64,000 bases of DNA from Phycomyces blakesleeanus NRRL 1555(-). Lineage: Eukaryota > Mucoromycota > Mucoromycetes > Mucorales > Phycomycetaceae. The DNA lies in NCBI RefSeq assembly GCF_001638985.1, contig NW_017265134.1:2828131-2892130 (forward strand). The letters are read 5' to 3'. The notes beneath the pieces are model-generated. The model was not told where the DNA came from. It saw only the letters and a list, made by a program, of their open reading frames with translations, and did not search any database. Positions 382 through 63,764 of the stretch are shown piece after piece. The stretch's first letter is position 1, and every line of letters starts with the position of its first letter. The position numbers were made by a program, and so were the translations under genes.

Positions 382-1299
382 ATGACACCACCCGAAGAAG
401 AAAGAAGAAAGATCATACAAGATGCACATCTCTTCGGACATTTAGGTGCAGAACACATAGTCGAACTCACCCATAAAAATGGGATGGATTGGACCAACAT
501 AATAAATGATGTACTAGAGTGTGTAAAAGGATATACTGCTTGCCAAAAGTACAACATAACGAGAAAAGGATATAATCCACTCCGACCTATACATGTATAC
601 ATACCAGGAGACCATTGGGCTATTGACTTAGCAGGACCATTAACGCCTACCGATAACGGCAACATGTACCTCTTCGTCATGGTCGATGTCTGCACTCGAT
701 TCTGCCTACTAAGAGCTATCCCGAACAAACAATCGGATACCATCATAAAAACTCTGGTACAAATATTCGGAGACTTTGTTTTTCCCAGAATCATTCAATC
801 TAACAACGGTACAGAATTCAAGAATGAGTTAATGGCGAAGCTCACGGAAAAATCAAGAATAGATCATAGACTAGTAACGCCATATCATCCTAGAGCAAAC
901 GACGTAGCAGAAAGATGGGTACAAACATCCATCCAAGTCATCAGAAAAGTAGTCGAAGAAACTGGAAAAGACTGGGATCATTATCTACCAGCATCACAAC
1001 TTGCGATCAACAACAAAATATCAAAAAGGCTAAACACAGCGCCTTTCTCACTCATGTTCGCAAGAAATATAAACGCCTTCAAGGATTACCGCGAGCCTGG
1101 AACAACACCAGCAAGTCCAATGACACACGATGAGTTATTAAAACGAATCGACCACATAGCGGAGGTAGTATTCCCCGCAATAAAAGAACGAACAGAACTC
1201 ATCACGAAAACGCAAAAAGAAAAAGTTCGACAAAACTCACACAATGGCAAAAATAAATATCGGCAGTTACGTGATGATAAAACTACCAACAAGAAGTAG
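382..1299 (+). pseudogene. Ty3/Gypsy integrase, damaged
   Basis: This encodes the integrase part of the chromovirus polyprotein, which would join element DNA to the host genome. An H2C2 zinc finger is visible (HLFGH ... CVKGYTACQKY, residues about 12-55), then the rve core: WAIDLAGP carries the first catalytic Asp, and AERWVQT after YHPRAND carries the Glu. The middle motif reads QSNNGTEF where the family has SDNG, so the second catalytic Asp is Asn (codon aac near 800-810). The frame ends in Lys-rich shifted sequence at 1299; the true continuation lies in the +1 frame from about 1244. There is no proper start codon, because this is an internal part of a polyprotein. Confidence 0.8.
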
Positions 1300-1867
1300 C
1301 AAACTGGCACCCGCCTACCAAGGTCTATACACAGTCATAAGACAAACCCAAGGAGGATCTTATGTACTTCAGGACGAAACCGGGGCTTTAATGCCTAGAG
1401 ACTATCCACCATTGGATCTGAAACTCATATCAGTTGACGAAACCGCCCTCGCTGATGAACTTGTCGAAGTACAAGCTATCATCAATCACAGAGGCAAAAT
1501 AGGAAGACGAGAATACCTCGTACGATGTAAAGGACAAGGCCCAGAAGAAGACAAATGGCTCACGCCAGATAAATTCACAGACTTAAAAACGATCCAAGAT
1601 TACTGGGCACGACGAGAAAAGCAAGAATTATCAACAACGGACAAAATCGCACCAACGGCTCCCAAAAGAGGACGACCACCTAAAAAAATATCCAACAACG
1701 AAGCAGCCAACAGCGCTCCCAAACGCAGAGGCCGACCATCTAAACAACCCAAATGGGTAGGTCGCCCACCAAAAAATACACAGTCAAACACTCCAGTCAT
1801 GCAAAAGCGTAAGGCACCTAGCAGACCTGCAAATACAATGCAGCGTAACAAACGTACTCGCATCTAA
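1244..1867 (+). CDS. Chromodomain and AT-hook tail of gypsy pol
   Basis: This is the C-terminal end of the same polyprotein, shifted one frame from the integrase. It starts with the GPY/F-like segment (GSYVMIKLPTRSSKLAPAYQG), followed by a chromodomain at residues about 70-115 (VEVQAIINHR ... YLVRCKG ... EDKWL). The last 65 residues are basic and hold three AT-hook-like cores: KRGRPPKK, RRGRPSKQ and VGRPPK. Chromodomains of chromoviruses direct integration to methylated-histone chromatin; AT-hooks bind the minor groove of AT-rich DNA. The overlap with the integrase frame (1244-1299) marks a frameshift, most simply an indel in an A run. Confidence 0.8.
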   Translation: MAKINIGSYVMIKLPTRSSKLAPAYQGLYTVIRQTQGGSYVLQDETGALMPRDYPPLDLKLISVDETALADELVEVQAIINHRGKIGRREYLVRCKGQGPEEDKWLTPDKFTDLKTIQDYWARREKQELSTTDKIAPTAPKRGRPPKKISNNEAANSAPKRRGRPSKQPKWVGRPPKNTQSNTPVMQKRKAPSRPANTMQRNKRTRI

Positions 1868-9183: not shown

Positions 9184-10872
9184 ATGTCATTCGATAACAA
9201 GGACTCTACCATCTCTGCTTCTGAGGCTGAATTCCAGGAACAGTCCAGCATTACCACCACGTCCAACGACGTCCAGGAACAGGTTGTCGACGCGCCTGTT
9301 GCTGAAAAGCTGACATCCAATGAAGACGAAACCACCAATGTTCCTGAGTTGAGCGAGTCTGTTCAGGCCGCCATCGCCACCGTAGTTGCCGCCCCCGCTG
9401 TCCACCTCGAGTCTATCATCCACCCCATAAAAGCTTCCTCTGCCGCAGTAGTATCTGTCGCCGATGAGACCGTCCAGGCTGTTCAGCCCGTTGAAGTCAA
9501 GGAATTGGATGCGTCCGTCAAGGCCGCCATCGCTACTGTTGTTGGTTCCCGCTCTATCAACCTTGATGCCATTGTTGCCACTATCGTCGAAGAGAACCAA
9601 AAGAAGGCTGCTGAGAAGGCCGCTGTCGTTGCTGCTGCTGCTGCTGCTGCCACCGCTGCTGCACTTGCTGCCGAACAGGCCGCCGAAGAAGAGAGACTTG
9701 CTGCTGTCCAGGCTGAGGAGGAGCGTATCGCCTCTGAGGAGGCTGCTGCTGAGAAGGCTGCTGCTGAGAAGGCCGCTGAAGAGGAAAGACTTGCTGCTGA
9801 GAAGGCTGAAGAAGAGCGTATTGCTGCTGAGAAGGCCGCCGAAGAAGAGCGTATTGCTGCTGAGAAGGTCGCCGAAGAAGAACGTATTGCTGCTGAGAAG
9901 GCCGCCGAAGAAGAACGTATTGCTGCTGAGAAGGCTGCTGCTGAACAGGCTGCGGAGGAGGAGAGACTTGCTGCTGAGAAGGCCGCTGCTGAGAAGGCTA
10001 TCGAGGAGGAGAGAATTGCTGCTGAGAACGCTGCTGCTGTTGCTGCTGCTGCCAAGGCTGAGGAGGAACGTATCGCTGCTGCCAAGGCTGCTGCTGAACA
10101 GGCTGCTGAGGAAGAGAGAATTGCTGCTGAGAAGGCCGCCGCTGAGAAGGCCGCCGAGGAAGAGAGAATTGCTGCTGAGAGTGCTGCCGCTGCCGCTGCT
10201 GCTGCCAAGGCTGAAGAGGAACTTGTTGCTGCTGAGAAGGCTGCTGCTGAGAAGGCCGCTGCCGAGAAGGCCGCCGCTGAGAAGGCCGCCGCTGAGAAGG
10301 CCGCTGAAGAGCAGCGTATTGCTGCTGAGAAGGCTGCCGAAGAAGAACGTATTGCGTTCGAGAAGGCTGCCGCTGAAAAGGCTGCCGAAGACCAGAGAAT
10401 TGCAGCTGAGAAGGCTGAAGCCGAGCGTCTTGCTGCTCTTGCTGCTGCTGCCCAGATTGAAGAGGAACGTGTTGCTGCTGAGAAGGCTGCTGCCCTTGCT
10501 GCAGAGGACGAAAAGAGAATCGCTGCCGAGAAGGCTGCTGCTTTGGAAGCTGAGGCCAAGTTAACAAAATCAGTAGAGTCACCAGCGCAGGTCGCCGGTG
10601 TTCAGAACACACAGCAACAGACCGAGCTTGAGGCAGCAGCATCATCCACTATCCAGAGACCCGAGCCTGTTGTACCTATGCCTTTGGCCTCCAGTGATGT
10701 AAACCCCCAGGTACACGCCGCACCTATCCAGCAGCCAGAACAACAAAAGGCTCTTCCTCCTACTCCCCAAGAACAGCAGCAGCAGACTTCCGATGCCCAG
10801 TCAACTCATGGATCCAAAGCAGAGTCAACTGAATCTCAGAAGGCTGCCAGTGGACGTTGCTCCATAATGTGA
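9184..10872 (+). CDS. Ala/Glu/Lys hendecad-repeat protein with CaaX box
   Basis: Intronless, 562 residues, function not recognised. Residues 1-130 are acidic and Ala/Val-rich and contain two related segments (SVQAAIATVV at about 59 and SVKAAIATVV at about 110). Residues about 140-460 are almost entirely repeats of AEKAAEEERIA, an 11-residue unit with some longer spacings (AEKAAAEQAAEEERLA), predicting one long charged amphipathic helix. A Gln/Pro-rich tail of about 95 residues ends in CSIM at the very C-terminus, a CaaX box whose final Met favours farnesylation. Hendecad helices occur in LEA proteins, apolipoproteins and synuclein; with a lipid anchor, a membrane-lining or scaffold role is plausible but inferred. 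Codons strongly prefer GCT/GCC/GAG/AAG, and GC is far above the neighbours, which suggests high expression. Confidence 0.85.
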   Translation: MSFDNKDSTISASEAEFQEQSSITTTSNDVQEQVVDAPVAEKLTSNEDETTNVPELSESVQAAIATVVAAPAVHLESIIHPIKASSAAVVSVADETVQAVQPVEVKELDASVKAAIATVVGSRSINLDAIVATIVEENQKKAAEKAAVVAAAAAAATAAALAAEQAAEEERLAAVQAEEERIASEEAAAEKAAAEKAAEEERLAAEKAEEERIAAEKAAEEERIAAEKVAEEERIAAEKAAEEERIAAEKAAAEQAAEEERLAAEKAAAEKAIEEERIAAENAAAVAAAAKAEEERIAAAKAAAEQAAEEERIAAEKAAAEKAAEEERIAAESAAAAAAAAKAEEELVAAEKAAAEKAAAEKAAAEKAAAEKAAEEQRIAAEKAAEEERIAFEKAAAEKAAEDQRIAAEKAEAERLAALAAAAQIEEERVAAEKAAALAAEDEKRIAAEKAAALEAEAKLTKSVESPAQVAGVQNTQQQTELEAAASSTIQRPEPVVPMPLASSDVNPQVHAAPIQQPEQQKALPPTPQEQQQQTSDAQSTHGSKAESTESQKAASGRCSIM

Positions 10873-15124: not shown

Positions 15125-18100
15125 ATGGCAAAGAGCAATGAGCAATTCCTCCGCATTGGTGATGACATATTTTTGTTTGATGAAGACAGTAATGTTCTAG
15201 TGGCCGAGAATCCACTCGAGACACGAGCATGTGCTCGCCCTACTGTCAGTAATCACCTGTCGTCTGAATCTCTCGGTACATGCATCTTCACCATCGAGCC
15301 CCAGCAATCCCACACAGAAACAAGAGCCCTAGAGATGTTCCTCGGAGACGATGAGGCCCTCGACACCTTAAGCTCCGAAGGTTCGCCTGAAGAACTAGCG
15401 GAGCTCAGGCAATTGCAGTCCAAGTCCAGAAAGGAACGTCTTCAGAACGACACCGAGAAGAGACGCCTGTTCGGAAAGCCAGTGTTATATGGCCAGGTTA
15501 TTCAGATGTATAATAGCCACTTTAGCAAGTACCTTACAGTAACTGGAAGAACATGCAAGACCGATGTATCACACCTACAAGTTAATCTCTCCAAGGAGAT
15601 AATTGGCTATTTCAAAATCATGCCACGATACAGAATCCGTGTTGATGGAGAACCTGTCCGATGGGGAGACACAATTGCTATACAATGTGTTAGGCCTGAA
15701 GGATATCTCAATGTTGGCACAAAACCACTGCACTCTGACGTTCACTCAACAGACTACTACGAAGTATATTCTCACACCCGTATATCCTCATGGACCATGA
15801 AGTGCCATAGTTCTGCTGCGGTCAATCAAGATGCCACAAAATCAAAGTATATAAATTCCGCACAACTTGTCAGATTTTATCACAAAGAGATGGAAGCTTA
15901 CCTTGAAACACCTGTCCTCGATCGGTAAATTCCACATACACAAACACACACATATATATATATGTATATAAAATGCGATTAGATTTTTCAAAGCTGGATC
16001 TGATCTAGGAATTCATGGTGTATGTATTTATTATTAGAGACGATGGGGATGTACGACTAAAGAAACACATTCTCAACCCTTTGGATCCTAAAGAGAGCGA
16101 TTCCCCATTAGCATTTTGGGAGGTAAGATGTGCAAATGCTTGTGTTGTATCTTTCTCTTTCTTTTAATATGTAAACTAAACATAAAATATATACATTTCC
16201 TGTGCTACATGATCTCCTTTTAGATTGAAAATGCAAAAACGAACAATGGATCCAAGGTCCGGTGGAAAAAATCTGTCCGCATTCGACATGCTGCTTCCCG
16301 GTCATATCTTTATATCGATCCCAACAATGTCCGGATTGATATGTCAACCCACAAAATAACCTTTTCTCTTGGATTGATGAAAGATCCTCCGTGTGTCGAT
16401 AATAACGACGCGACCCTTTTCACACTTGTGCCCATATCTGAACCCACACGTTCAGGAGTACCATTTGGATCTTATATTCGTATTCAACATGTGCTGACCA
16501 AATGTTGGATCCATGCTGCAGGTGATGATGAGGTCCAGAATGTGTCTTCGGTTCCAATGCCTTTTACACTTGCGCCAGATCCGCTTTCTCATATGCAAAG
16601 CAAGATACCTATACCTACGTTGCACAGCATATCTAAAATGAACAAACCGTCCGTAACTTCCACAACCAGTCGTTTGGCAACAAGAAACTATACACGCTAT
16701 GATTCTTCTATGGATGGAAAATCCTATAGTATCTCTCATGAACAAGAGGAAGCATCAGGCTACCATGTCACCGCTTCTCAAGACTTTTATTATCATGACT
16801 GCTTTACGATTACCCTGGTAAACGATTCCCTGAGAGACACTTTCAACTATGTGAATGAACTCTTGCCACGCCTTCAATGGTATCTCAGGAAAGAAAGAAA
16901 GCCAGATCCGGAAAGTGAGGATATCGGAGAAGCAAGCAATTTCCCTATAACACGATCAGAGTTCGACAGCATAACAGAGATTTTGGTATTGTTTGTTAGG
17001 TGTTTTTAAATTGTGCGTGCTTAAGTATTATATTTTTTTTTAAAAAAAAAAACTTGGAAAATGTAGAAAGAGCTTGTGCGGTTCTGTACTGATAGTAAAG
17101 AAGCCGATCTCGTACGCCGTGTAGGGCTCCCAGAAGAATGTGAGTAAAGCTTACCTGAATAAGATTAATATATATATATATTTAAAAAAGAAATATTTGA
17201 AACAGCGAATTGATATATGTATGTGTATATGTATATAGATCATCAAAGTCTTATTCGTGATAATGGTATTATTGAATGCGTTGTCAACATGATCCAAATT
17301 CCATTTTCCTTGGCCAAACGTTACGAAATGAGAAATGACGGACAGTCCGATAATTATAAGAGACGTGAACCAGCTTCTGAGGACGTTGTTCCAATCGATA
17401 CTCTATTTAATCCACAAGAGAGCCGTCTTAAAACAATTCTTACATTGTGTTACAATCTTCTTCGAGTCTTTCTGGTGGGTGGATCCAAATACGAAGAATC
17501 AAACGAGCATGTTAAGAATCAACTGCATGTCGTAAAAGTGGCTGGTGATGTGGGGATCGAGCTGTTTGTCCAGCATCTGGCATATCAAGTGGGAGCCACT
17601 GACATGATGATAAAACTTCTTTACGACAACAACACAATTGTGGAGCGGGTTTCTGCATTCAGACCCTCAGTTATACAGATCTTGATCAATCTTGGTCGTA
17701 AGAAAATGAACGCGGTGATCAGAGGTTTACAGAACTCTACGCCAATGTTAGCCGAAGATGATTATGAGTCAGCTAGCATATTTGATCTTCTTGCTGCATT
17801 CTGTCACACTGAAACCCGTGGATTATTGGTCTTAAACCGTGATCAAATCCTCGACCAGATGTTCAATCTGGCTGATCCAAGTAGATCTTTTTTGGAGATG
17901 CGGATCCCACACGATACTGGTTCTGTAGAAATCAAGTTCTTGAACGACGAGTGGAGAGACCTCGATATCCTTCTATATGAAAATCTACCGACTATTAGGT
18001 GCTTTATCCAGAGCCTTTTAAATCTTGTATATTCCCTTTCATTTGGCGCAAACACAAAGTATCTTGATCTTATACGGCTATTTATTGGAAAGACAGTGTG

Positions 18101-21100
18101 CCTAAAATGCATTGGATACGTTAATCTTCCATGCCAGATAAGAGCGATATTCTGCGATCTATTAAGAGGTTATTATATATACATATACCTATATGCCTTT
18201 GATTGTGCTATTTTTACTCTTACTGATTCATTTTCTTTTGACTTTTGCGTGTAGTACTCTACATTGATATTTCACCCTTTAGTGAAGTTGTTTTATCTGA
18301 CTTTACCATGCAATACAATTTGCTCGATGATTCAAATGAGTATCCTTCTGGAGGAACCGGAAGTGTTGAAAGCAAATCACCGGAATTCTTTGATCATCTA
18401 AAGCATTGGACACTTGTATTTCTAGATGACAAAAGCCATCAGGTTGGTAAATCTTTCACTCTTTCTTTAAACGGTTAAATAAGAAACAAAAAGGTTAAAT
18501 TACTAGCACACACACACACATACATACATACGCATATATATTTATATAATTTATATTGTATTTTGTAGCTTACAGAGCTTAAAGACGAAGTTGCTTTCCT
18601 ATCTTCAGTATTAACCCTTGTAAAAACTCAATTAAGACTTGGGTTTTTTAGTGAAGCTGATGATGTAAAGCGTCTTTTTAGAGCCCTTGTTTATGTATTA
18701 GATGGGCGTACAGATGCTCGGTATGAACTTATATTTTATATGATATTTTTTTTTCTGTTACTTATATTACATTAGTAATGTAGACCATCTCAAAGTGATG
18801 ACTCAGTCAAAAGAACCTAGATACTGGTAAATAAGATACACAAAAAAAACAAATATCTTATATAGCAGCAGAAACCGGACCTAAAAGAAGAAGATATGGT
18901 TTTTAACATAAGATATTCTTGATTATTAGGGTAGAACGGTTTCTTTTGACAGAGGAAAACCAAGGTATTATGAATGCCAAAATTCAGATACTGGAAATCT
19001 TTGATCTCATTTTCGATTTACGGCTACATGTTCGGATGAGCAAGTTAACACACAAGTGGAAAATCATGGAGACGTTAGTTTTCTCTTCCTTTCTTTCTTT
19101 CTTTTATACCTTAGTCTTTATTGATTATAACATTCTTTTTTACATGACTTTTGAACAGGAATACAAGTAGTGAGCCTCCGTTCTCTCTTCGTACTACATT
19201 AACAACAATTTTTGAGGAAACACAATTAAGACAAAGAGAAAAAAGTTTGATGCCTATACTTAAAGATATTTTAAAGTACCAGTACGCACCACTGAAACGT
19301 ATTGCCGTAGTAGTTATGCACAGGATCTACAATGATTGTGAAGGTAAAGGACACGATACATTTTTTTTTCAATAACTACCACCCTATTTTCTGTATTTCT
19401 ATTAACCACAGATTCCTCTATATATGTTAGACTTATTTAAGAAAGCATCCCAAGTTTTAATTCTGAACCAAACACAACAAGTTCTTGTTTACCATGGAGT
19501 AAAGAAACGGTTGACCCAGCTTCGATCCTTCTTGTCTGTGGACCGACTGAGCACACATCACCTTCCACACATTGAACATGTCCTGACCGAGTTCAGTAGT
19601 TTATTTCACGGGAAGACTATCGACTTTAACGATCAGACATGTGCACTTGAGAATTCCCAAGACCAGCGGAATATATACGGAAAGATATTCAAAAACTTAA
19701 AAGCACATTTCGTTGTAGTCCAACTCTTGCGTGCACTCAGGGCACCTCTGATTGAAAGTCAAGATATGTCGGATAGTGAAGAAGAAGAAGATAATGATGT
19801 TCGCCTCAGAACGCTTACAGCTTGCTTCGATTTCTTGGTTGAAATGACAATAGATGATAAAGAGCTCCAGGTAAGCACATATAAGCATATTTAAATGTGT
19901 CTGTGTACAAGAGTTCGATTTAGAAAACACATAACTTAATAGAGTTCTGTTAATTCGTAGGGTCCTTTCGTTTTAAAAAATATCGATCTGCTGATAGATG
20001 CCAGTGGATTCCACCCAATGCTGGCAAAAAGTCTTTACAAACTTTGTGGAAACAATCTTTTCATCAGTGTCCGTGTACGGGAAGAGCATATTAAACATAT
20101 GCTTGAAGAATCACAAGGCCACCAGAGTGAATACTTGCGTATATTGCATGACTTTATGAAGGCTCAAGGAAAACTCATAAAAAAGCATCAAGATTGTACA
20201 ATGCGCCTAATTATGGAGAATCGTACATTGTATGTACCCTTCAACACACCCCAGGACTTGATATCTTCAGAACATATTGATTACTGCGTCGAGTTAATTG
20301 AGCTTCTGTCAGTATGTGGACAAGGAGATAACAGCTTTGGACAATCGGTTAGTTACTTTTTTTAAAAAAAAAAGAATAGTAAAGTAAAGTAAAGTAAATT
20401 ATATCTATATATGTACTAAAATATTGGATGGCTTTTAGTTTGCACGTACCATATTTTCAATTCAGGATGTTACCGCAATAATACAAGATCCATCGTCTCC
20501 ATCAACGCTGAAAACAGCTATGCTGCGATTCCTTGCTTCTGTCTATCTTGATAATACGGAAGTTCCTTCGAGTGTGCCTGTCAGCGATAACAAGAATATC
20601 CGCACAATAATGGAGTCTGCTCACAATGAGATGATAAAAGCCAAGGTCAATCCAACCAAAGATATTATGGATTATGTATATAATGGTGTTCTAGTATTTT
20701 TGAGAGCAGTATTTGAGCATCACATTTCGGTCGAAACAGCAGTAGACGAGGCTTTGTTCTTACTGTGCCCACGATTAGTGGATCTAACAGTGGACTTACT
20801 TACACGTGCTGCAAATGATAAGCATGCCCTTCAACACACGCTTGCATGCATTGATAGCATGATCAATGTGTCGGGTTTCAGAGGTAGCATTGATCCGGAG
20901 AAACTTCGTGACAAATTGCGAGATGCGATCACACGGCTCACAGGCAGCACAAAGCAGAATATCAAACCACTAGATTCAATGAATGCAAAATTCCAAGGCT
21001 TTATTCGTGCTCTCATGGCCCATAATGGTGTGCTGCAACTCCAAAAAGAAGAATTTGAAAAAATGTGTAAGTAAACAGGATATCTCGAATATTCATATTG

Positions 21101-24100
21101 TATTTCTTTAACTCGGTTTTTTTTTTCTACACAGGTTCACATTTCAGTTTAGTGGACGCTAACTCTGAAGAAGACGTCAAATCTTTAATTGACTATCTGT
21201 CGATGATGATGGTATCAAAGAGCCAAGACAAAACAGAGCATTATCAAGTTTCTACAATTGAGATATTGGAAGAAATACCGCTTCGTCATATTCGGAACCG
21301 TTCTGATAAAGCTATGAGTTCAGCTGTTCAAGCAGAAGCATTAGAAGCCAAAAAAGTTCTTGCCCAGAACACTCTTAATCGGCTCGGATGTACACTTGTT
21401 GCCCAGAACCTTTTATCTTCTCCACGACGACAGATTTTTGAAGCAGCCTTGAAACTCTTGATATCTTTGCTTGAAGGTGGAAATAAAAACGTCCAAGATA
21501 AACTAGAAGAATATTTCTACAGTATCCGGTAAGAAACATGCAACAAAAATTATTCACTATCAATCTTACACAACGAAAGCTCTAACATGTATTTTGGTTA
21601 TAGAGAAGAACGCTTTTTTTACTCTTTCCACCAAAGATTAGAAGATGGTATTGCATCTCTCAAAGAAGCTCAACTTCACTTGATTCGCACAGCATACAAA
21701 ATGAACCGGCAACAATGTATATTGAGCCTTGATACGCTCGAAAACCGGTCGATAAAGGCGTTGAAGAAATCTAATGGTCATCGTCGCCACTCGTCTTCTA
21801 TCGACATTTCTCGTAATAGCCATCGAAAACGTATTAAGCAGCAAACACAAACCTCTACAGAATCTGCGCTGATTTACCAAAAGATATCAACACTAATGGC
21901 AAATGAGACTGGCGAATTTGGAACAGCCAATGAAGATTTTGAAGGGATGAAGGATACTATGCGCGCTCTTCAACTTATGGTAGAAGGACACAATATCAAT
22001 TTGCAGACTTATTTGGCCAAACAGCCTGATAATATCAAAAGTTTCAACATTGTACAAGACGTAGTTGAATATCTTCATGCAATTGTGCCATTGTGCAGTA
22101 TTCAGAATGTTAGATTGATCATTCAAGTTCTAGATACTATTACAGAGATGGCACAGGTATATTTTATAACATTAACCTGTCTTGTGTGTGTAAACTGATG
22201 GCTGTTTTTAAAAATAATAATATTACTACAATAATATTACAAACTTAGGGTTGCTTGGAAAATCAGGTATAGTCGTCATCTTTCTTAAAGAAAAAAAACA
22301 TACTTTCAAAAGTGCAATAAGTACAACGCAATTGACAATTTTTTTATTCGCTTTTATACATTAGGTGACGATCTTTAACGACAAAGTCATCAATCCTTTC
22401 AACACTATATTGCGAGAACCTTATGTGAGCTGCCCAAGCTCACTTGTGAATGAACTGAAGGTAGAAGTATTGTACTCTAGACTATATTTTCCTCTAAACG
22501 ATTACCAGTTGCTCATATACATTTTATGTATAAGTGTAAAGTAGTTGTTTGCTTGCTGAGTTTATTAGAAGGAGGAATTGAAAACAGTGATACAATTTTC
22601 AGAGAGATGGCCGCATCTTTAGATCTGTCAATTGTGAAGCGCAATATGAATACAATATACGTGAACAACGTGGATAATCTAGAACACCCTTCTGTATTTG
22701 ATAAGCTTGAGTGCGGTTTTCTTTACTGTATGCTTGTTATGACCCTGTCCCCAGCGCTAGATGAAACTCAGGTAAAAAAGTATTAAGTTAAGCTTACATG
22801 TATATATATATATATCGCTCAACTTAATCTTCACTTGTACATATAGCATTCTATGTTTAGTGGAAATGTTGCGTTCGAATATTTTCAAAAGAACACAGGA
22901 AAGATTGAAGTAGTTATGGACTACGGTCAAGAAAAACAACTCTCTCGCGTTTTGTTTCCTATACCGGAAGTGTGTAACTACCTGCGTGAAGATACAAAGC
23001 AACGATTCTTATGGAATGTTAAACGGTAAGAAGTCAAAAGGTTATAAAAAAAACCCTGGGTCTGCTTCATTTTCAGCACCATGCGTATATTCTAATTACT
23101 TGTTTTTTCTTTTTTTTTGTAGTGATTCGCCGTCTGCTAAAATTGAGGATTTCGTTCAACAGTCAAGTAGTATTATTTATGAGTATGTAAAAGTGAGATG
23201 ATTTTTGTGTAAATGTATAAAATTTATTTAATGCATATTATAATTTAGAATTAAATACCAAGCAAGAGTTGCCAGTAATAAGTACCTCTCGCTACTAACA
23301 GAGTACAGCTCATTCTGGTGGCAGGCGTCATATGGTGTTACTATAATACTAAACCTTTTGATGCTAATTTACTCGTCCTTGTTAACACAAACTGAACCGG
23401 GATCCCGTCACGTTGACCATATCAACACTTTTCGGATATTTTTGGGAGTTATACATTTGTTTCTGTGGGTCTTGTCTACTGCAGAGTTCTACTTTATTCA
23501 ACTTCCAGTTCTGGTTAATCGCCACTCATCTAAAAGCTCGGATATACAATTGGATAACCTGGTCACTTCAGATGAAAGTGTAACTGAAGAAGAAGGTTCA
23601 TTTTTCAGTGAATTATTTTCTCAAAGAGTAAGTTAAATTGAATAGCGATCCTTTGAGCTTCAACTGTCTGACCATCCTCCATTTTTGTGGGTGTGATAAA
23701 TTCTACAAAGAGATTCAACTTGAGCTTTGTATTGGCTAGTATCTCTGAATCTCAGTTTTTATACCATATTTTGATGGTTGGTTTTTCAGCAATTGGATTA
23801 TATTACCCTGGATTTCACGCTATTCATCTTCTCGATTTTGTGTTCCGTGATCGTATTCTTCAAGGAGTTATTTCAAGTATTACTCTTAATGTCAGCTCTA
23901 TCACAAGAACGGTAAGCTACGGGAAAGTTAATCAAAGAACAAATATATTTATATCGATAAATATTTGCTTTATGGTTTTTTATTTGTTTTAGGCACTGCT
24001 CGGAATTATCGTAGTATACATTCATAGTGTTGTTGCCTACAAATACTTCCGCACAGAATTCGATGGGACTAAGGGCTTGTTTTGCGGATCTCTTTCGGAA

Positions 24101-24971
24101 TGCTTTGTCACTATATTATCTCATGGGTAAGTTTACAAAAGCATCAACATAGGTATGTATGTATGTATCAAACTAATACTACGTGTAATCGAATTCAAAG
24201 TATCCGCTCTGGAGGTGGGATTGGTGATATTTTGGAACCAAACGATCTTCAGCCTCGTGGTTGGAGAACTGTGTTTGAGATGTCATTTTATCTGGTTGTG
24301 GTTGTGTTCCTACTCAATGCAATTTTCGGTATCATCTTTGACACTTTCGGTCACCTTCGTGATGGTAAGTCTTGTTCCAACTTTACTATTTTATTAGTAT
24401 CACCAAGAACTAATAACTTACTTTATAAAATAATAGAGCGATCCTCTGTACAGCAAGATATGAAAAATTGTAAGATCCTTTCTAGAAACGACTTTCCTTG
24501 TCTAATAATATATTTTTAGCATGCTTTATTTGTAGTATACACGCTGTTGAATTTCAGCGACATGCTAAGAAAGGCTTCGAAGATCACGTAAAAAATGATC
24601 ATAACATATGGTACTATGCAAACCTTGCCAACTATGTTAACTCACGGAAATTCAATTACTTACTTTATTACGCTTAAAGGCAATACTTGTTCTTCATAGT
24701 TCATTTAAAAAACAAGCATAGAACGGAATATACTGGCCCGGAATCTTATGTAGCAGCATGTCTTAAAGATGTCAACTATAGCTTTTTCCCTATCAACCGT
24801 GCTCTATGTCTAAGATATAATGAGGAAGATGACACAGAGAGGCTTGAGAAGCTGGAGGAGCTGACGCAAAAAATGATAGACAAACTAGGGAAGGTAGAAG
24901 AGTATATTGAAAAGATGTCAGAGACACAGGTTCGCTCAAGGTCCAATAGCCTTATGGTCTCACCAATATAA
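15125..24971 (+). CDS. ITPR: IP3-receptor/ryanodine-receptor-like Ca2+ release channel
   Basis: Twenty-seven exons: 15125-15924, 16038-16122, 16224-16985, 17067-17139, 17239-18168, 18255-18442, 18569-18720, 18776-18826, 18930-19073, 19159-19343, 19431-19870, 19961-20347, 20466-21066, 21135-21528, 21604-22156, 22249-22266, 22365-22460, 22535-22771, 22847-23025, 23123-23182, 23249-23627, 23711-23911, 23993-24126, 24201-24364, 24437-24469, 24520-24610, 24680-24971; about 2,542 residues (animal IP3 receptors about 2,700). The N-terminus (FLRIGDDIFLF) and MIR repeats (YLTVTGR, LVRFYHKEMEAYL) are followed by RIH solenoids, an RIH-associated region (GCLENQ, FEYFQKN ... VLFPIPEVCNYL) and six membrane segments (about 2138-2396). 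The pore filter is GGGIGD (2354-2359). A C2H2 site follows (CFIC 2417-2420, H2438, H2443), then EYTGPESYV and a coiled-coil end. The family releases Ca2+ from the ER as a tetramer. The start is the ATG nearest the conserved N-terminus; a longer frame upstream is (TA)n translation. Confidence 0.92.
24211..24228 (+). other. Codons for pore selectivity filter GGGIGD
   Basis: These six codons encode Gly-Gly-Gly-Ile-Gly-Asp between the pore helix (SECFVTILSHG) and the last membrane segment. Animal ryanodine receptors have the same six residues; IP3 receptors have Val in place of Ile. The conserved Asp and Gly set Ca2+ conduction in the family, so this copy appears under constraint as a working channel. 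Confidence 0.9.
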
Positions 24972-61482: not shown

Positions 61483-63764
61483 TTAAAAGAGAGGATTGAG
61501 GTCTAATTCTTGGCAAATGCGGGTTAGGGTCTTGCGAGCCGTACCAACAACAGCAGACGGAACAAATGGTGAATCGTCAAAAATGAAAGTCCAGTGGTGA
61601 CGCCATATCGCAAGGAGGGTGCATCCAAAGACGGTAGAAGGGGGAATAGAAGAGTTTAAGGAAGAGGGAAAAGAGAAGAAGTGAAAAGCGTTGTGTAGTG
61701 CGGTTGGGGTAGGTATTGTGCCAAAGAATTCCAGCCACATGCCGATCCACACCGCGTTTTTGAGAGGACAAGTGAAGAAGAAGTGGTCTTGGGAGTCGGA
61801 GGAGAGAGAGTAAATAGAGCAGGTAGGAGAGGGAAAGGCGAGAGGAAGCAAAGAGTGAAGACGGGCTCGGCAAGAAATCTTGTCGTGTAGACCACGAAAC
61901 CAAATATTACGAGCCACCAGGGGAAGGGGGAAAGACCAAAATTTCCGCCAATGACGAGAGCCACGGGGGGGATCGAAATAGCGGGCACGGACGAGATGGT
62001 GGGAGCACAGCCCGCGGAAAGTGCGTGTGGAAAGACGTGCCCAAGTCTGAGAAGGTACGAGCGCATTAAAGAAAGGGAACAAGTCAATGGATGTGTCATC
62101 TTGAACGGGCAGAGACGGATATTGTTCGGTCAGTTCACGAGGAGAGCAGCAAGCGCGAACGATTATCGGGTGTAATGTGAGGGTGTTGAGTTGAACTCGG
62201 CTAAGGAACTTATTAATAACACGAGAGCGTTGATGGCTGCTGATGATGGAGATGGACCGTAGCGACGCCAGGGCAGGGTCAAAGGTGTAGAGGTGGGAAA
62301 CCAAAAGATCGTTCCAGGATGGGGGGAAGCGTGCTTGGGAAGCAGGGACAATGGTGACCGCTGAGAGAGGCAAAGCAAGGCAAGTAGTCGAATTTACCAC
62401 AACATTATCAAAGTTGTGCGGCAGATGGTCAATGGCAGCGAAGACTAAATGTAGAGGAGAGGTAAGATCCCGCCATCCAGAAGGACGCATACTTGGAAAT
62501 AGAAGGGGGAATAGGGGAGAAAGAGAAGGAAGTGAAGCCTGTAACAAGCCGGACATCCAGCGCGGGACCAAACCAGCGGGGGACCGAGGAGCGCGGACGA
62601 TAGGTTGAAGCCAACGAAGTTGTAGAGCGCTCTGCTGCGTCTTAGGATCGATGATACCAAGTCCGCCTTGCACGCGTGGGAGGCAGAAAGTATCCAAAGA
62701 AATCGGGGGGAAGGTGCCACGTTGAAGGAAGCTACCCATGATGGACCTGATCTTCTGAAAGAAGGACATAGGTAGAGAGACCACACGCAAAACATGCCAA
62801 AGCTGAGAGAGTATGAGAGATGTTAGAACGGTGGCTTTACCCCGAAAGGAGAGAGAGAGCGAGATGAGTGAAGATTGCAGCTGTCCTCAATCCTTTGGAG
62901 AAGAGATGAGCAGAACGAGTCCCGTTGAGCCTTGGAGTGAATCAACGGAAAGCCAAGATAACGGAGAGGTACGGGCGAGGTGCGGTCATGCCAATCGGTA
63001 ATGTTATGACGACGGAGGGTGGAGGTCCAATCGGGGAGAGGACTACCAGATAGTGAGAAAGCTTGCGTTTTGTGGAGGTTGATACGCGCATTGGACGCAG
63101 CGGAATAGGTGGTGAGATGTGTGTGGAGTCGAGTAAGGTGAGCCGGATCTGGGAGAAATACCAGAAGATCGTCGGCATAAGCTAGAAGTTTAATAGGAGG
63201 AATAGTAGCCACACTATCAGGGACAGAAGGTCGAAAACCGAGGAAGGATTGATCACTTATAACCCGTCGCAACAAAGGTTCAAAAGCCAAATTGAACAAG
63301 ATGGGAGAGAGAGGGTCGCCTAGACGGAGGCCACGCAATTGTGTGAGAGGGCGAGATAGGAAGCCATTAACGTTGATCTGAATATGTGCAGAGAAAAACA
63401 ATTGGGTGATACAAGTTATTATAGATTTAGGAAAGCGAAAGTGATCAAGAACTCGGCGCAAGTATTCTGGGTGGACTCGGTCGTACGCTTTCTCCTGATC
63501 AAGAAGAAGACCCACTCCAGTCGAGCTTTCCTGAAGTGCCTGAGCCATGACCATCCGGGTGAGCATCCCATTATCAGCAATAAATCGTCCTTGAACAAAG
63601 CCAGTTTGGTAGGGAGTGACAAGAGGAGTGGCAGCAGGGATCAAACGAGAGTTAAGAAGACGAGTGAAGACCTTAGCATCAGTGTTGATAAGTGCGATGG
63701 GTCGCCAATTCCGAAGGGAGGTAAGGTCGCCTTTTTTCGGGAGAAGACACACGCAGGTGGACAT
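61483..63764 (-). mobile_element. Non-LTR retrotransposon (LINE), RT and C-terminal part
   Basis: Minus-strand frame 63764-62823 is a LINE reverse transcriptase: LRNWRPIALINTDAKV, GFVQGRFIADN, DQEKAYDRVHPEYL, the catalytic YADDLLVFL and INLHKTQAFSL. The protein continues in another frame at 62790-61483 (QGGLGIIDPKTQQSALQLRWL, then the C-terminal HFFFTCPLKNAVW zinc-like motif). The two parts are separated by a frame break inside a CT run (about 62857-62870), as expected of a 2-bp slip or error. The endonuclease and 5' end would lie past 63764, where the sequence turns into homopolymers. GC content is clearly higher than in host DNA. Confidence 0.88.

What the first reader, a model, noticed from the sequence alone, without database searches (positions are those of the whole stretch)
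15125..24971. Full-length IP3-receptor-like calcium channel in a fungal genome
The 27-exon model closes into one frame of about 2,542 residues with every landmark of the family: N-terminal MIR region, RIH and RIH-associated domains, six membrane segments, GGGIGD filter, CFIC...H...H linker and EYTGPESYV. To my knowledge IP3/ryanodine-type channels are missing from ascomycetes and basidiomycetes, where vacuolar IP3-evoked Ca2+ release has no known receptor. An intact gene in a fungus with otherwise ordinary fungal genes is therefore of real interest for the evolution of Ca2+ signalling.
Basis: partly seen in the sequence, partly recalled or inferred. Interest (0 to 1): 0.85.

Follow-up and report, generated by a model that had tools for sequence, protein, structure and literature searches.

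The report
Fungal IP3-receptor-like channel, IP3 pocket lost
This fungus carries an intact gene for a calcium-release channel of the IP3-receptor family, already on record and shared with many early-branching fungi, but the fungal versions compared here seem to have lost the site that binds IP3 while keeping the site that senses calcium.

Summary
Window 15125-24971 (+) carries one intact 27-exon gene (26 of 26 introns GT-AG) for 2,551 residues, identical to a deposited protein named "IP3 receptor" of Phycomyces blakesleeanus (Mucoromycota). It lies on a multi-megabase contig, so contamination is very unlikely. The novelty claim does not hold: of 78 hits to its C-terminal third, 43 are early-diverging fungal proteins, and a 2022 review already cites IP3 receptors in Mucor. 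No named hit is an ascomycete or basidiomycete.

The useful result lies elsewhere. Of nine IP3-contact residues of IP3R1, the 29 fungal proteins I aligned (of 43) keep 0-3 (Phycomyces 2); 10 canonical animal receptors keep 8-9. The five activating-Ca2+-site residues are kept (4-5 of 5 in all 29). Genome searches found no PI-PLC, with weak controls, while PIP5K and inositol-phosphate kinases rang. An AU test, with groups named after a first tree, rejects fungi plus canonical animal receptors as a clade. Best reading: a vertically inherited, Ca2+-gated release channel of the IP3R/RyR superfamily, probably not opened by IP3. Nothing was tested biochemically.

The parts
15125..24971 (+). whole gene, start codon to stop codon, 27 exons, 2,551 aa; IP3R/RyR-superfamily calcium-release channel
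   Evidence: frame closed, 26/26 GT-AG introns, identical to P0001 (Phycomyces blakesleeanus 'IP3 receptor')
15125..15924 (+). exon 1: suppressor (beta-trefoil 1) domain and start of beta-trefoil 2
   Evidence: Ins145_P3_rec match 5-229; exon 1 alone matches solved IP3R1 N-terminus 3uj0 at 1.1e-11
16038..16122 (+). exon 2: loop that binds the P4 phosphate in animal IP3Rs (RTTGRQSATS there), here HILNPLDPKE, residues 277-286
   Evidence: animal contacts T267, R269, S274 are here L279, P281, E286
16224..16985 (+). exon 3: rest of beta-trefoil 2 (MIR) and start of ARM1
   Evidence: MIR match 242-398
17067..17139 (+). exon 4: start of ARM1 helix h3, with E573 at the place of animal R504
   Evidence: h3 stretch EEYHQSLIRD, residues 572-581, runs over the exon 4/5 junction
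17239..18168 (+). exon 5: rest of the ARM1 contact helices (animal K508/R511 -> S/R; Y567/R568/K569 -> H/V/K) and RIH region
   Evidence: RYDR_ITPR 32.3 bits at window 17208-17810
18776..18826 (+). exon 8, 51 nt, 17 residues, missed in my first model and present in P0001
21604..22156 (+). exon 15: start of RIH_assoc / ARM3 with activating Ca2+-site residues E1867, H1869, E1921, Q1924
   Evidence: RIH_assoc 1850-1945; site positions; animal residues from PMC8930994, placed on the alignment by their spacing
22249..22266 (+). exon 16, 18-nt micro-exon GCLENQ, residues 1925-1930
   Evidence: Q1930 invariant, G1925 and N1929 nearly invariant in the 21-row alignment A2
23123..24364 (+). exons 20-24: membrane domain, filter GGGIGD (2363-2368), S6 helix
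   Evidence: Ion_trans 2143-2415; positions and hydropathy
24437..24971 (+). exons 25-27: C-terminal linker/zinc-finger domain (C2426/C2429, H2447/H2452), EYTGPESYV with T2473, C-terminal tail, stop codon

Best explanation
It is the only member found in this genome of an old fungal branch of the IP3R/RyR superfamily: a tetrameric intracellular Ca2+-release channel with the usual build (N-terminal trefoils, armadillo solenoid, six-helix pore, C-terminal zinc linker). It was inherited vertically in Mucoromycota, Basidiobolus, Entomophthora and chytrids. Cytosolic Ca2+ bound between ARM3 and the C-terminal linker domain most likely opens it (Ca2+-induced Ca2+ release); IP3 most likely does not, because the IP3 pocket has been replaced by a different, conserved loop. 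Shown here: gene structure, domains, conserved pore and Ca2+-site residues, loss of the IP3 contacts, tree position. Inferred: tetramer, location (endoplasmic reticulum or vacuole), Ca2+ gating, insensitivity to IP3.
For: Intact 27-exon frame identical to P0001. Four Pfam domains in IP3R order. Nine IP3-contact residues (named for IP3R1 in PMC9663519): identical in 0-3 of 9 in 29 fungal rows, Phycomyces 2; 8-9 of 9 in 10 canonical animal rows. Five Ca2+-site residues (named for IP3R3 in PMC8930994): 5 of 5 in 27 and 4 of 5 in 2 of the 29 fungal rows, counting D as kept at the E1946 position. The replacement loop NPL(D/N)P is present in 17 of 18 Mucorales rows; the other is a gap. Fungi form one side of a branch (26 of 26 rows, SH-aLRT 100). 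Fungi plus canonical animals as a clade is rejected, p-AU 0.017. Phycomyces genome: 0 matches for PI-PLC-X, PI-PLC-Y and the PLC EF-hand-like family, and 0 for E-[LIVMF]-D-x-W-D-G, against 18 matches for PIP5K and 8 for IPK.
Against: No binding or channel data. Pocket loss is read from a sequence alignment that is ambiguous around Y567-K569; Phycomyces still has R511 and K569 equivalents, and a shifted set of basic residues could bind IP3. S274 is S in only 5 of the 10 canonical rows, so that position carries little weight. The IP3R3 Ca2+-site numbers were placed on the alignment by residue spacing (E-x-H, E-x-x-Q), not by a tool. PLC absence rests on an exon-by-exon genome search in which no control genome rang for PLC, so the tool itself says it does not show absence; a heavily split PLC gene could be missed. 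The tree's outgroups are long branches, mostly unnamed, that do not form one side of a branch; the AU groups were named after the first tree was seen; fungi plus the divergent lophotrochozoan type has support of only 51-86.
Confidence: 0.72

Rival explanations
1. A true IP3-gated receptor: the fungal pocket binds IP3 with other residues, and the gene is the missing receptor for IP3-evoked release in this fungus.
For: Ins145_P3_rec and MIR domains kept; R511 kept in 27 of 29 fungal rows; K569 equivalent kept in Phycomyces; deposited name 'IP3 receptor'; matches to the IPK family, whose members act on inositol phosphates (family knowledge), at five places in the genome.
Against: T267, R269, S274, R504, K508, Y567 and R568 all changed in Phycomyces (to L, P, E, E, S, H, V), and 0-3 of 9 kept in the 29 fungal rows; no PI-PLC found in the genome.
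Confidence: 0.13
2. The remodelled pocket binds a different ligand (another inositol phosphate, pyrophosphate or nucleotide), which co-gates the channel with Ca2+.
For: The replacement loop is itself conserved: NPL(D/N)P in 17 of 18 Mucorales rows; proline at the R269 position in 27 of 29 and an acidic residue at the S274 position in 28 of 29 fungal rows. IPK-family matches at five places in the genome.
Against: Conserved loops can be purely structural; no ligand is indicated; the acidic change argues against a phosphate ligand.
Confidence: 0.12
3. Contaminant or pseudogene in a fungal assembly.
For: None found.
Against: Intact frame, 26/26 canonical introns, contig position 2.83-2.89 Mb in a 53.5-Mb assembly, letter-for-letter match to the deposited Phycomyces protein, nearest row in the tree Apophysomyces and a clade of 10 Mucorales rows.
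Confidence: 0.01

Closest known systems
Deposited Phycomyces blakesleeanus 'IP3 receptor' (P0001) and its Mucorales orthologues
   Same: Identical protein (Phycomyces); 44-78% identity over the aligned part in 17 other Mucorales proteins; the altered IP3 loop in 17 of 18 rows, the other a gap
   Different: Nothing for P0001; the name implies IP3 gating, which the sequence does not support
Animal IP3 receptors, IP3R1-3 (canonical)
   Same: Domain order, GGGxGD filter, CFIC...H...H linker, EYTGPESYV, Ca2+-site residues
   Different: 7 of 9 IP3-contact residues changed in Phycomyces; clade with fungi rejected, p-AU 0.017; 23-24% identity to the canonical rows
Divergent IP3R-like proteins of molluscs and the annelid Owenia (probably the IP3R-B type, a name recalled from Alzayady et al. 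2015, which is not held in the library)
   Same: Nearest animal group to the fungi in both trees (support 86 and 51); also lack the RTTGR loop
   Different: They keep 4-5 of 9 IP3-contact residues but only 1-2 of 5 Ca2+-site residues, the reverse of the fungi
Oomycete IP3R homologues
   Same: PMC9694693 reports limited conservation of IP3-contact residues and doubts classical IP3 signalling (passages read)
   Different: Stramenopile proteins, not compared here
Ryanodine receptors
   Same: Pore and C-terminal domain homologous (RyR1 3.4e-57 for the whole protein; RyR3 1.9e-45 for the pore piece); PMC8930994 says the Ca2+ site is shared with RyRs
   Different: Half the length; no RyR or SPRY domains among the 4 Pfam matches; IP3R1 scores better than RyR on the pore piece

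Membership tests
IP3R/RyR superfamily | Ins145_P3_rec - MIR - RIH - RIH_assoc - Ion_trans order | tested here: met
   one search gives four of the five; RYDR_ITPR (RIH) only in the genome scan, 32.3 bits, not for the whole protein
IP3R/RyR superfamily | GGG[IV]GD selectivity filter and CxxC...H...H linker next to the pore | tested here: met
IP3R/RyR superfamily | Activating Ca2+ site between ARM3 and the C-terminal linker domain (E1882, H1884, E1946, Q1949, T2581 of IP3R3) | tested here: met
   5 of 5 in Phycomyces; residues named in PMC8930994 and placed by their spacing
IP3 receptor in the strict sense (IP3-gated) | IP3-contact residues T267 R269 S274 R504 K508 R511 Y567 R568 K569 | tested here: not met
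   2 of 9 in Phycomyces, 0-3 of 9 in 29 fungal rows, 8-9 of 9 in 10 canonical animal rows
IP3 receptor in the strict sense (IP3-gated) | Binds IP3 and releases Ca2+ on IP3 | not testable with these tools
   needs expression and assay
IP3 receptor in the strict sense (IP3-gated) | Orthologue of canonical animal IP3R (clade with them) | tested here: not met
   fungi plus canonical rejected, p-AU 0.017; outgroups are long branches and the groups were named
Ryanodine receptor | About 5,000 residues with SPRY and RyR repeat domains | tested here: not met
   2,551 aa, four Pfam families, none of these
IP3R-B type | Clade with divergent lophotrochozoan members | tested here: inconclusive
   support 86, 51

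The most novel reading that the evidence does not exclude
The whole fungal branch gave up IP3 and became a Ca2+-only (ryanodine-receptor-like) release channel, or a receptor for a different ligand in a remodelled, conserved pocket, in fungi that, like Phycomyces, may also have lost PI-PLC. If so, the 'IP3 receptors' annotated in early fungi are not the receptor for IP3-evoked vacuolar release, and classical PLC-IP3 signalling had already been dismantled in this lineage while its channel was kept.
Probability: 0.35. Interest if true: 0.65.

Novelty: new member of a known kind. Interest (0 to 1): 0.45.

Why it matters
It bears on two statements at once. The printed claim that fungal genomes lack IP3R/RyR genes (PMC3410928, 2012, passage read) does not hold for early-diverging fungi. 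The database name 'IP3 receptor' for such a gene is probably misleading about what opens the channel. It gives a concrete, cheap test (IP3 binding by the N-terminus) of whether fungi lost IP3 gating before some of them lost the channel.

Tried and rejected
Contamination and pseudogene: rejected. A second, canonical IP3R copy in the genome: only one RYDR_ITPR and one RIH_assoc match, both in this gene; the tool calls its counts lower bounds. PKA-regulatory-subunit neighbour, suggested by a fused Dichotomocladium protein (P0009): the 12 cNMP-binding matches in Phycomyces lie on contigs other than C1, and the extra 406 residues lie after the channel's C-terminus, so it is probably a merged gene model. 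PLC: 12 matches to an HNTYL-like DNA pattern (22 matches to the reversed control pattern) were read by eye for about 120 codons and none continues as a PLC. Papers: Alzayady 2015, Corrochano 2016 and Cai and Clapham 2012 are not held. A fungal Ca2+-transport review (PMC6997533, term search only) has 0 occurrences of IP3R, IP3 receptor and ryanodine. Library searches Phycomyces + IP3 receptor, IP3 receptor + chytrid + calcium, and Mucoromycota + calcium + IP3 receptor returned 0 papers; ITPR + Mucor + fungal + calcium release returned only PMC9694693. The section on inositol signalling of a Mucoromycota lipid paper (PMC10629195, section read) does not mention a PI-PLC. No structure was predicted: the proteins in hand are over the 1,200-residue limit, and I chose not to fold single exons.

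Slips of mine: one search printed no sites because its reference row lacks the animal motif; it was redone. One search translated one exon in the wrong frame and was not used. My first reading by eye gave E at R568 and K569 in Phycomyces; the alignments give V and K, which I report.

Rows dropped: alignment A3 holds 29 of 43 fungal hits. Left out by my choice, as near relatives of kept rows or partial: P0003, P0004, P0007, P0009, P0010, P0013, P0014, P0017, P0036, P0048, P0051, P0057, P0059, P0062 (8 of these, P0003 to P0017, are in the 18-row alignment A1). The 10 'canonical' rows are picked from 23 animal hits other than Owenia; the 6 'divergent' rows are 5 of the 14 mollusc hits plus Owenia, which I placed there after seeing its loop. 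The first tree uses 47 of the 53 A3 rows, the second 24 rows.

Full report
Observation. The span 15125-24971 on the + strand was read exon by exon. A first model gave 26 exons and 2,534 residues. Comparison with the nearest deposited protein showed one missed 51-nt exon, 18776-18826. With it the gene has 27 exons, 26 of 26 introns are GT-AG, the frame is closed at 2,551 residues, and the product is identical, letter for letter, to P0001, deposited as "IP3 receptor [Phycomyces blakesleeanus]".

Setting. The window lies at 2,828,131-2,892,130 of contig C1 in a 53.5-Mb, 60-contig assembly. Phycomyces blakesleeanus belongs to Mucoromycota, Mucorales. The genome search gives one RYDR_ITPR and one RIH_assoc match, both in this gene, so it is single-copy at this sensitivity.

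Domains. Pfam gives Ins145_P3_rec, MIR, RIH_assoc and Ion_trans in IP3R order. RYDR_ITPR is seen only in the genome scan. The filter GGGIGD, CFIC and EYTGPESYV are present, and the two linker histidines are nearly invariant over 53 rows. The best solved relative is IP3R1 (1.9e-106), with RyR1 at 3.4e-57.

Distribution. A search with residues 1690-2551 returned 78 proteins at E <= 0.001: 43 fungal (20 Mucorales, 3 Basidiobolus, 1 Entomophthora, 19 zoosporic fungi), 24 animal, 1 ciliate, 10 unnamed (counted from the names shown). Of the zoosporic set I checked Quaeritorhiza and Clydaea in the taxonomy; the rest are called chytrid from general knowledge. None of the 68 named is an ascomycete or basidiomycete. 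PMC3410928 states that IP3R and RyR genes are absent from fungal genomes (passage read). PMC9694693 cites an IP3R in Mucor (passage read). So the family is known in early fungi, and the 2012 statement is too broad.

IP3 pocket. PMC9663519 (passages read) names T267, R269, S274, K508, R511, Y567, K569, R504 and R568 of IP3R1 as contacts of IP3. In alignment A3 (53 rows) the 10 canonical animal rows keep 8-9 of these 9, and the 29 fungal rows keep 0-3. Phycomyces keeps R511 and K569 only; T267, R269, S274, R504, K508, Y567 and R568 are L, P, E, E, S, H and V. R269 is kept in 0 of 29, K508 in 0 of 29, R504 in 1 of 29, R511 in 27 of 29. S274 is S in only 5 of 10 canonical rows, so it says little alone. 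In 17 of 18 Mucorales rows of alignment A1 the animal loop is replaced by NPL(D/N)P; the remaining row has a gap.

Ca2+ site. PMC8930994 (passages read) names E1882, E1946 and the main chain of T2581 of human IP3R3, with H1884 and Q1949 near; I placed these on the alignment by their spacing. Fungal rows: E 29 of 29; H 29 of 29; E 16 and D 13 of 29; Q 28 of 29 with one gap; T 28 of 29. The six divergent lophotrochozoan rows show the reverse: 4-5 of 9 pocket residues, 1-2 of 5 Ca2+-site residues. This contrast is the main result. The eight unnamed rows are mixed: 0-9 of 9 and 2-5 of 5.

Tree. On 786 columns and 47 rows the 26 fungal rows form one side of a branch (SH-aLRT 100), as do the 10 Mucorales (100) and the 12 chytrids (97); the 4 Basidiobolus/Entomophthora rows do not. 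This is as expected for vertical descent. With four long-branch outgroups, fungi plus canonical animals as a clade is rejected (p-AU 0.017) and canonical plus divergent animals too (p-AU 0.0017); fungi plus the divergent type is in the best tree but weakly supported (51; 86 in the larger tree, where two unnamed rows join the divergent type). The groups were named after the first tree was seen, the outgroup rows did not form one side of any branch, and both trees are quick searches, so the root is unsure.

PLC. In the same genome PI-PLC-X, PI-PLC-Y and the PLC EF-hand-like family give 0 matches. The coding pattern for E-[LIVMF]-D-x-W-D-G, a PLC signature recalled from general knowledge, gives 0, as does its reversed control. 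Twelve matches to an HNTYL-type pattern do not continue as PLC. PIP5K gives 18 matches and IPK 8. For the three PLC families nothing rang in the 14 control genomes either, and the tool warns that this does not show absence; loss is likely but not proven.

Mechanism. The conserved pore, linker and Ca2+ site indicate a Ca2+-activated release channel. The changed pocket indicates that IP3 is probably not its ligand. Tetramer, membrane of residence and gating are inferred by homology.

Verdict. Real, intact and ordinary as a gene; already deposited; not the first in fungi. The informative part is the loss of the IP3 site with retention of the Ca2+ site in the early fungi compared. I saw no paper on that point in the held library by the searches; two searches listed only 20 of 612 and 20 of 345 papers, and three likely sources are not held, so priority is not established.

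Noticed in passing
window 382-1864 (+): Integrase core and zinc-binding domains, then a chromodomain match below its cut-off: probably the remnant of a Ty3/gypsy-type retroelement upstream of the gene.
   Followed up: no
window 61483-62790 (-): zf-RVT domain just under its cut-off (27.4 against 27.5 bits), probably a retroelement piece at the right end of the window, where GC is highest.
   Followed up: no
window 9184-10872 (+): A 562-codon open frame with no Pfam match, the longest single open frame left of the gene.
   Followed up: no
P0009 (Dichotomocladium elegans): Deposited channel protein carries a PKA-regulatory-subunit-like tail in 406 residues after the channel's C-terminus; probably two merged gene models, since Phycomyces has no cNMP-binding match on contig C1.
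   Followed up: partly
P0019, P0020, P0022, P0027, P0030, P0064: Mollusc and annelid IP3R-like proteins keep 4-5 of 9 IP3-contact residues but only 1-2 of 5 Ca2+-site residues, and all six are gapped at the first two positions of the GGGxGD filter in the alignment: a divergent animal type worth its own study.
   Followed up: partly
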